Positions 2,997 through 64,000 of a DNA stretch of 64,000 bases are shown one piece after another. The stretch is from assembly GCF_000746825.1 (NCBI RefSeq), contig NZ_JQIV01000006.1, positions 186,001 to 250,000 on the forward strand. The letters are read 5' to 3'. Origin of the DNA: Carnobacterium inhibens subsp. inhibens DSM 13024. GTDB taxonomy: Bacteria > Bacillota > Bacilli > Lactobacillales > Carnobacteriaceae. The translations under genes were made by a program, and so were the position numbers. The notes beneath the pieces were generated by a model. That model was not told the origin of the DNA, searched no databases, and worked only from the letters and a program-made list of their open reading frames with translations. Within the stretch, counting starts at the first letter, position 1; each line of letters starts with the position of its first letter.

Positions 2997-3113
2997 ATGC
3001 TTAGTTGAATAAAAATAATGGTTGGGCATTTGCTTTCAAGGATGAATTCTTCAAGGGGTGAGAAGAATGATTCTTAAGTGATGTCTTTTTTTGTATTTTA
3101 AGGAGGTGTATGA

Positions 3114-62362: not shown

Positions 62363-63187
62363 ATGACTACAGCATTATTAAAGAAAGTTAATGAAGCAAA
62401 AAGCTATATTTTAGAAAATGGTGTTCAAGATATAGAAGTTGGATTGATTCTAGGTTCTGGATTAGGGGAGTTAGGGGACGAAGTTGAAAATCCAATTGCG
62501 ATCTCATATAGTAAGATCCCTCATTTTCCTGTGTCTACTGTAGAAGGACATGCTGGACAATTAGTATATGGAACATTGGGCGGTAAAAAAGTATTAGCTA
62601 TGCAAGGGCGTTTTCATTTTTATGAAGGGTATACTTTAGAAGAAGTGACTTTCCCGATACGAGTAATGAAAGCACTTGGTATCCATTCATTGATCGTGAC
62701 AAATGCAGCTGGCGGAGTCAATACTGATTTCACTCCAGGCGAATTAATGATGATCACAGATCAAATTAACTATACTGGTACCAATCCTTTAATAGGACCA
62801 AATGATGCTTCTATGGGACCGCGTTTCACGGATATGAGTCATGCCTATGATGCAGCTTACCAAGAAACCGTTCGTTCTGTAGCTAAGAACATGGATATAG
62901 ACTTAAAAGAAGGCGTATATATTGGTTTTTCTGGTCCAACTTATGAAACTCCAGCCGAAATAAAAATGGTTCGTCAATTTGGTGCTGATGCTGTTGGGAT
63001 GTCTACTGTTCCAGAAGTTATTGTAGCAAACCATGCAGGTATGAGAGTCATCGGTATATCTTGTATTACTAATTTAGCTGCTGGCATGCAAGCGACATTA
63101 AATCATGAAGAAGTGGTAGAAACAACACAGCGTGTTAAACATACATTTAAAGCTTTTGTAAAAACTATTCTTTCAGAAATGAAATAA
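62363..63187 (+). CDS. punA: Purine nucleoside phosphorylase
   Basis: This protein of 274 residues cleaves purine nucleosides (guanosine, inosine types) with phosphate. The trimeric class signature is shown by GLILGSGLGELGD near residue 27, GHAGQLVYG, QGRFHFYEGY near 84, VTNAAGGVN near 111 and PTYETPAEIKM near 194. I place the start at ATG 62363; the ATG at 62351 is part of the GGAGG that forms its RBS. It follows deoB by 25 bases. A terminator-like hairpin follows. Confidence 0.96.
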   Translation: MTTALLKKVNEAKSYILENGVQDIEVGLILGSGLGELGDEVENPIAISYSKIPHFPVSTVEGHAGQLVYGTLGGKKVLAMQGRFHFYEGYTLEEVTFPIRVMKALGIHSLIVTNAAGGVNTDFTPGELMMITDQINYTGTNPLIGPNDASMGPRFTDMSHAYDAAYQETVRSVAKNMDIDLKEGVYIGFSGPTYETPAEIKMVRQFGADAVGMSTVPEVIVANHAGMRVIGISCITNLAAGMQATLNHEEVVETTQRVKHTFKAFVKTILSEMK

Positions 63188-63208
63188 AAAAATCATTGAT
63201 TAGATAGA

Positions 63209-63275
63209 AAGAGGAACTGTGAAGAAGTTATGGCCTAGTTGCCAAACTTTTAAGCAGTTTCTCTTTTCTTCATTA
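63209..63275 (+). terminator. Terminator-like hairpin after punA
   Basis: AAGAGGAACTG (63209-63219) pairs with CAGTTTCTCTT (63255-63265) with one G-U pair. The following sequence is T-rich (TTCTTC). Confidence 0.6.
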
Positions 63276-63366
63276 ATTTAATACAATTGAAGAATAGTAG
63301 AAAGATTTGATTTTTTAGAGTGTGCAAATAGGGTTGTATGACAAATGGTGTGGATGCTTCAAAAAA

Positions 63367-63536
63367 ATTTCTTCTGGAATGGACGGGTTTGCTTGTGGAG
63401 CCATGGGACCGCCTGTAAGCCTGGAGTCTTACAGGCTTTCAAGCTTCAAATAAACCCTAATCGCTGAAGCGCTAACGGTTTATAATTCTCATTGAATCCT
63501 ATACAGGGCTACAAGCAACCCTATTACTCCAGAAAT
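63367..63536 (+). ncRNA. Structured RNA candidate of about 170 bases
   Basis: A long closing stem joins both ends: TTCTGGA (63372-63378) with TCCAGAA (63528-63534), then GGGTT-TGCTTGTGG (63385-63398) with CTACAAGCAACCC (63509-63521). Inside lie a perfect 9-bp hairpin (63411-63419 with 63428-63436) and a second one, ATAAACC / GGTTTAT (63450-63483), with an inner CGC-TGAA-GCG. Several pairs are G-U on the + strand and would be A-C on the other, so the + strand is likely transcribed. The overall shape, a long closing stem with an open middle, recalls 6S RNA, but this is a guess. It lies upstream of the lysA promoter. Confidence 0.55.
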
Positions 63537-63608
63537 GTTTGGTGAGTATTTTGAATAATCTATCAACATTAAAATTTATAGACCCGCAAATAGGCACTAT
63601 TGATCACA

Positions 63609-63637
63609 TTGAGAAAAGCTTTTTTTTGTGTTAAAGT
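63609..63637 (+). promoter_or_regulatory. Promoter of lysA
   Basis: TTGAGA is followed by a 17-base spacer and TAAAGT. This makes the transcript start about 35 bases before the ATG, with no room for a riboswitch. Confidence 0.6.
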
Positions 63638-63679
63638 AAGTAAAGCAAAAAACAAGCAAAACTGAGATGAGGATAGTTA

Positions 63680-64000
63680 ATGGACGAAAGATTACTAACA
63701 GGAACAATGAAAATAAATAAAGCTAACCATTTAGAAATAGGTGGTATAGACACTATTTCATTAGTTGAAAAATATGGAACGCCTCTTTATGTATATGATA
63801 TTTCTCAGGTTAAACACAAAGCACAAATGTTTAAAAAAGCCTTTCAAGATAGAAAAATCAAAGCACAAGTAGCCTATGCAAGTAAAGCTTTTTCTTGTTT
63901 AGCTATTTATCAATTAATGGCCAAGGAAGAAATGTCTTTAGATGTGGTTTCTGGAGGAGAACTTTTTACAGCTATCCAAGCTGATTACCCTAGTAAAAAA
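63680..64000 (+). CDS. lysA: Diaminopimelate decarboxylase, 5' part
   Basis: The gene runs off the window; the first 107 codons are seen. The enzyme decarboxylates meso-diaminopimelate to lysine and uses PLP. The N-terminal region has KYGTPLYVYD, and the barrel carries the PLP-binding lysine K69 in VAYASKAF, with LDVVSGGELF near residue 91. GAGGATAG precedes ATG 63680. Since the C-terminus is missing, related fold III decarboxylases cannot be fully excluded, but the sequence fits LysA well. Confidence 0.92.
   Translation, partial: MDERLLTGTMKINKANHLEIGGIDTISLVEKYGTPLYVYDISQVKHKAQMFKKAFQDRKIKAQVAYASKAFSCLAIYQLMAKEEMSLDVVSGGELFTAIQADYPSKK

What the first reader, a model, noticed from the sequence alone, without database searches (positions are those of the whole stretch)
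63367..63536. Unassigned structured RNA between punA and lysA
A 170-base non-coding block has a long closing stem and two internal hairpins, one of 9 perfect pairs. G-U pairs in the closing stem favour a + strand RNA. A separate lysA promoter lies downstream, so this is not simply a lysA leader. It lacks T-box and lysine riboswitch signatures. A 6S RNA is the best known guess (ACAGGGCTACA near the 3' side and overall shape), but a new regulatory RNA is possible.
Basis: partly seen in the sequence, partly recalled or inferred. Interest (0 to 1): 0.65.

Follow-up and report, generated by a model that had tools for sequence, protein, structure and literature searches.

The report
Transposon insertion carrying a conserved RNA
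The "unknown RNA" between two genes is the inside of a small jumping DNA element that inserted there in one Carnobacterium lineage, and that inside part is a strongly conserved folded RNA, on the opposite strand to the one first proposed, carried by dozens of similar elements per genome across the lactic-acid-bacteria order.

Summary
The structure is real, but it is not a single-locus punA-lysA RNA and not 6S RNA. Window 63332-63585 is a 254-bp non-autonomous transposon (MITE) with ISL3-family ends and an exact 8-bp target duplication (GCAAATAG, 63324-63331 and 63586-63593). The same intergenic region is empty in four congeners. Its interior, on the minus strand (63365-63538), is a three-way-junction RNA with very strong covariation: over 40 diverse copies, 54 of 60 pairs change on both sides; covariation score 0.73 against 0.18 in shuffles. 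A covariance model finds it in 45 of 395 sampled Lactobacillales genomes (23 of 80 genera), with up to about 95 copies per genome. No Rfam 15 family reaches its threshold on the copies tested. In Aerococcaceae the same RNA lies inside full-length ISL3 insertion sequences, just downstream of the transposase gene and on its strand. That fixes the RNA strand and explains the MITE as such an element without its transposase gene. Best mechanism: a transposon-encoded RNA, made with the transposase transcript or from a circle-junction promoter, serving the element's own transposition or control. Fold, strand and transposon origin are shown; function is inferred. No expression data were available.

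The parts
63324..63331 (.). Left copy of the 8-bp target-site duplication, GCAAATAG
   Evidence: Exact repeat at the boundary of the repeated unit; absent as a pair from the empty sites of relatives
63332..63585 (-). ISL3-type MITE, 254 bp; its RNA-sense (left end to right end) direction is the minus strand
   Evidence: Alignment of 61 copies with unrelated flanks; ends and duplications; same ends as autonomous ISL3 elements; empty site in G001, G002, G003, G005
63332..63358 (-). Right inverted repeat (IRR) of the element; in other copies it carries an outward TTGAC (-35-like) box
   Evidence: Matches IRR of full ISL3 elements over about 25-30 nt
63365..63538 (-). Structured three-way-junction RNA
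   Evidence: R1 match 175 bits, E 1.2e-41, minus strand (G000:C6:249365-249538 = window 63365-63538); covariation
63558..63585 (-). Left inverted repeat (IRL) with a TATAAA/TATAAT (-10-like) box reading inward on the minus strand
   Evidence: Matches IRL of full ISL3 elements
63586..63593 (.). Right copy of the 8-bp target-site duplication, GCAAATAG

Best explanation
Window 63332-63585 is an ISL3-family MITE that inserted between punA and lysA in this Carnobacterium lineage. It has the left end, the structured RNA and the right end of an ISL3 insertion sequence, without the transposase gene. The RNA (minus strand, 63365-63538) belongs to a Lactobacillales-wide family of transposon-borne three-way-junction RNAs. 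Inferred working: in the full element the RNA is made as the 3' part of the transposase transcript; in a MITE it is made from the -10 box in the left end, helped by a flanking -35 or by the -35 box of the right end when the ends abut in an excised circle. The folded RNA, probably by binding the transposase or a host factor through its conserved loops, serves the element (control of, or help in, transposition), so that MITEs that keep it are favoured. Shown: MITE anatomy, insertion, RNA fold, RNA strand, position in full elements. Inferred: transcription, binding partner, benefit to the element.
For: Exact 8-bp duplications and ISL3 ends in many copies; cognate autonomous ISL3 elements with PF01610 transposase and the same ends; empty site in relatives; covariation; wobble and mismatch asymmetry favouring the minus strand; the same RNA 3' of and on the same strand as the transposase gene in full ISL3 elements of G103, G281 and G020, and in G017; right-end -35 and left-end -10 boxes that would be 12 bp plus linker apart in a circle junction.
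Against: Closely related ISL3 transposases (82-93% identical) lack the RNA, and so do Carnobacterium's full ISL3 elements, so it is not required for every such element. In G124 the RNA lies upstream of the transposase gene and antisense. Several Aerococcus and Enterococcaceae genomes have many RNA copies and no close ISL3 transposase. No transcript has been shown.
Confidence: 0.7

Rival explanations
1. The conserved fold acts as DNA: a hairpin or cruciform extruded from the MITE is recognised by the transposase or a host protein, and RNA is irrelevant.
For: Both strands fold about equally well; G-U pairs are only about 2-3% of cells, low for an RNA; the unit is a mobile DNA.
Against: Mismatches are strand-asymmetric (G-U 54: A-C 21; G-A 89: C-T 13), unlike a two-strand DNA structure; invariant internal loops form tandem G.A on one strand only; in full elements the fold lies just after the transposase gene on its strand, not at an end.
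Confidence: 0.13
2. Old copies are kept by the host as useful RNAs (for example 3'-end elements that shape mRNA ends or decay); transposon origin is only history.
For: Orthologous copies across species and genera with many compensated changes; in Aerococcus the transposon ends have decayed while the RNA stays intact; the gene on the RNA's 3' side ends toward it 56 times against 16.
Against: The window copy is young and lineage-specific. Copy numbers vary from 0 to about 95 between related species. Whole stems are replaced at an orthologous site (L292/L298), which suggests gene conversion. Avoidance of promoters alone would also place copies at gene ends, and divergent sites are indeed rare.
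Confidence: 0.12
3. A passive passenger: a hairpin-rich segment caught once between ISL3 ends and conserved only by recent spread and gene conversion among copies.
For: RNA presence toggles between close transposase relatives; evidence of copy replacement.
Against: Order-wide conservation of unpaired bases together with complete turnover of stem sequences needs long-term selection on the fold; same position and strand in at least three divergent transposase lineages.
Confidence: 0.05
4. 6S RNA or another resident single-locus RNA of the punA-lysA region, on the plus strand.
For: Overall shape: a long closing stem with internal hairpins.
Against: 6S RNA is elsewhere in the genome; no Rfam match here; site empty in relatives; dispersed repeat.
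Confidence: 0.01

Closest known systems
ISL3-family insertion sequences and MITEs derived from them
   Same: Ends, 8-bp target duplication, PF01610 transposase in cognate full elements
   Different: A conserved structured RNA between the ends; none of the papers searched describes one for ISL3
QMITE1 and QMITE2 of Coxiella burnetii (PMC5896051)
   Same: MITEs of 150-400 bp in about 50 copies that give rise to small RNAs; QMITE2 mostly in 3' untranslated and intergenic regions
   Different: Other organism; QMITE2 is described with an IS1111-targeted REP; no sequence comparison was made here
Mobile/repeat sequence candidates such as MRSC-65-2 (PMC11109978)
   Same: Multicopy structured motif sometimes near transposase genes, with strong covariation
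   Different: MRSC-65-2 is described as a single long stem with UYCCGG repeats, from diverse phyla; ours is a three-way junction found only in Lactobacillales samples
omega RNA (IS200/IS605, IscB) and bridge RNA (IS110) (own knowledge)
   Same: A structured RNA encoded in the non-coding part of an insertion sequence, next to the enzyme gene
   Different: ISL3 has a DDE transposase with 8-bp duplications; no guide or target-matching segment was looked for or seen; no RNA function is known
S. aureus sRNA tsr24 (Rfam RF02577)
   Same: Staphylococcaceae repeats weakly matched by R2 (29.8 bits) share the GAGAC..GGCUC hairpin and match tsr24 at 37.3 bits
   Different: Below tsr24's threshold of 50; the window copy and the Lactobacillales loci do not match tsr24; kinship unproven

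Membership tests
ISL3-family MITE | Terminal inverted repeats shared with a cognate ISL3 element | tested here: met
   About 25-30 nt at each end match full ISL3 elements L120/L121; the window copy's own ends are somewhat diverged
ISL3-family MITE | 8-bp target-site duplication | tested here: met
   GCAAATAG on both sides; exact in many other copies
ISL3-family MITE | Short, no transposase gene, multicopy | tested here: met
   254 bp, no ORF; 7 to about 95 copies per genome
ISL3-family MITE | Empty site in relatives | tested here: met
   punA-lysA region without the element in L311, L313, L314, L315, L317, L319
ISL3-family MITE | Mobilised in trans by an ISL3 transposase | not testable with these tools
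   Needs an experiment; the window genome has one PF01610 gene, without recognised ends
6S RNA (RF00013) | Covariance-model match | tested here: not met
   No match in the block; the genome's 6S is at C6:97986-98173
T-box or lysine riboswitch | Covariance-model match upstream of the regulated gene | tested here: not met
   No match in 62500-64000 even at E up to 10
tsr24 (RF02577) | Match at the gathering score | tested here: not met
   No tsr24 match on the window or on 13 family loci; only Staphylococcaceae L304 at 37.3 bits

The most novel reading that the evidence does not exclude
The RNA is a working partner of a DDE (ISL3) transposase: a cis- or trans-acting RNA cofactor needed for efficient or targeted transposition, in the way omega and bridge RNAs partner other transposon enzymes, and the MITEs act as portable RNA genes.
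Probability: 0.12. Interest if true: 0.95.

Novelty: new variant of a known kind. Interest (0 to 1): 0.62.

Why it matters
It adds a large, apparently uncatalogued family of structured RNAs, tied to a DDE insertion-sequence family and present in dozens of copies in many Lactobacillales. If the RNA partners the transposase, it would extend RNA involvement to another class of transposon enzyme. If not, it is still a clear example of a transposon spreading a ready-made RNA structure into intergenic regions, and it warns that a well-folded intergenic block with no family match can be a mobile element.

Tried and rejected
6S, T-box, lysine riboswitch and other Rfam families: no match. Plus-strand RNA: rejected on wobble and mismatch asymmetry and on orientation in full elements. 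Copies of the window element on plasmids or phages: none. Origin of the core from the 1.5-kb Carnobacterium IS: rejected, since beyond about 30 nt at each end the two share no visible sequence and no RNA match lies in it. Spread outside Lactobacillales: nothing clear in 399 Bacilli and 398 phylum genomes; two weak Staphylococcaceae hits share a hairpin only. T-box-like letters on the plus strand (TGGGACCG) lie in a covarying helix and are not a T-box. Literature searches for ISL3 with a structured RNA, Carnobacterium or Aerococcus repeats, and repeat sequences found nothing direct.

Full report
What was claimed and what is there. The structure is real: both strands fold about five standard deviations below shuffles, and the 9-bp hairpin is present. 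No Rfam family matches the stretch, even with permissive settings. 6S RNA is found elsewhere in the same genome, so that guess is excluded.

It is a dispersed repeat. A search of the own genome gave further partial copies, and a search of 98 genomes gave many copies in congeners and other genera of the family. Sixty-one copies were aligned with flanks. Outside a unit of about 255 bp the copies are unrelated. The unit ends in imperfect inverted repeats, GGYTCTnnnGTCAAATGGTGTGGAT at one end and GGYTCTATAATTTTTAGTGTGGAT at the other. Many copies have exact 8-bp target duplications. This copy has GCAAATAG at 63324-63331 and 63586-63593, so the element is 63332-63585, 254 bp. Named genome records show that the set of relatives includes Carnobacterium jeotgali and Desemzia; that the window itself is Carnobacterium is inferred from its sharing a genus with the genome that matches C. 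jeotgali.

It belongs to the ISL3 family. Autonomous 1.5-kb elements with a PF01610 transposase, the same ends and 8-bp duplications occur in C. jeotgali and G001. The punA-lysA region of four congeners (G001, G002, G003, G005) and of two other genera (G013, G017) has no element. The finding is therefore a lineage-specific MITE insertion between the punA terminator and the lysA promoter, both of which are visible in the relatives.

The interior is a conserved RNA fold. A hand-built structure on the minus strand was counted on 50 near copies: 93.3% of cells paired (slid controls 29-48%), 34 of 60 pairs with changes on both sides, covariation score 0.208 against 0.089 in shuffles. With distant copies (40 diverse sequences) the score is 0.732 against 0.179, and 54 of 60 pairs change on both sides. 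That alignment was fitted to the structure and leans towards it, but the slid and shuffled controls are far away. The outer stems have quite different sequences in different lineages, while the three-way junction keeps fixed bases: AAUGYGAAUUA and UUUGAR around a tandem G.A, a GAGAC..GGCUC hairpin, and CGGU.

Strand. Read on the minus strand, G-U cells exceed A-C cells 96:52 in the near set and 54:21 in the diverse set, and G-A mismatches exceed C-T 89:13 in the diverse set. In distant copies tandem G.A replaces Watson-Crick pairs in P6. The position in full elements, below, agrees. Cells count sequences, not independent events.

Distribution. A covariance model from near copies finds 7 to 95 copies per genome in 11 of 18 genomes of the family, matches in 45 of 395 genomes and 23 of 80 genera of the order, and up to 91 copies in Aerococcaceae. 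At most 150 candidates per genome were scored, so high counts may be low. A Bacilli sample of 399 genomes and a phylum sample of 398 gave nothing clear outside the order. Two weak hits in one Bacilli genome carry the GAGAC..GGCUC hairpin within another repeat that partly matches the known S. aureus sRNA tsr24; I leave their kinship open.

The parent elements. In G103 (family named from Aerococcus tenax) a 1.78-kb ISL3 element with exact duplications has a 450-aa transposase (PF01610, PF14690), then 18 nt after the stop codon the RNA on the same strand, then the right end. In G281 and G020 a second transposase lineage (46% identical to the first), in 1810-bp elements with exact duplications, has a variant RNA with two GAGAC..GGCUC hairpins at the same place and on the same strand. 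A third lineage in G281 (34-39% identical to these) and one element in G017 have it too; the G017 transposase looks truncated at the RNA. The MITE reads left end, RNA, right end, as in these elements without the transposase gene. Against a strict rule, close relatives of these transposases lack the RNA, Carnobacterium's own full elements lack it, and the G124 element has it upstream and antisense.

How it may work. The left end holds a TATAAT-like box reading inward and the right end a TTGAC box reading outward. If the ends abut in a circle with a linker of about 5 bp, the spacing becomes about 17 bp, a junction promoter of the kind known from other IS families (own knowledge). This would make the RNA in the sense orientation. 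I infer that the RNA acts for the element, by binding the transposase or a host factor; this is not shown. A host role for old copies is possible: some copies sit at orthologous sites with many compensated changes, Aerococcus copies keep the RNA though their ends have decayed, and the gene on the RNA's 3' side usually ends toward it, 56 to 16, by an ORF heuristic. But whole-stem replacement at one orthologous site (L292/L298) points to gene conversion, which could also spread compensated versions.

Verdict. Observation confirmed; single-locus and 6S readings rejected; the new-RNA reading upheld in changed form, as a transposon-borne RNA family on the other strand. No matching description was found in Rfam 15 or in the papers searched; most subscription papers were not searchable, so an earlier description of the repeat cannot be ruled out.

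Noticed in passing
window 3020-3067 (+): Na+ riboswitch aptamer (RF03071), 46.8 bits, above threshold; the only Rfam match in the window.
   Followed up: no
window about 63207-63266 (+): Hairpin followed by a T run downstream of punA, conserved in congeners: probable punA terminator.
   Followed up: partly
L302 and L304, about 1490-1620: Repeat in a Bacilli genome outside the order (G521), with a CUUGAGAC..GGCUCAAG hairpin, that partly matches S. aureus tsr24 (37.3 bits); it resembles from memory a widespread Bacillaceae repeat.
   Followed up: partly
L264 1088-1264 (-), L272 1010-1246 (-): ISL3 element of G124 carries the RNA between its left end and the transposase gene on the opposite strand.
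   Followed up: partly
L235, L286 (G187, Aerococcus): Several RNA copies within a few kb; homology is limited to about 180 bp, some copies are about 95% identical, yet no close ISL3 transposase is found in that genome. How these amplified is unexplained.
   Followed up: partly
L229 (CP127381.1 523440-529623): A 592-kb record of Aerococcus tenax labelled a plasmid holds about nine places similar to the RNA repeat.
   Followed up: no
L292/L298, L060/L084: Orthologous intergenic sites hold members of different RNA subfamilies in different species or genera, as if copies replaced each other in place.
   Followed up: partly
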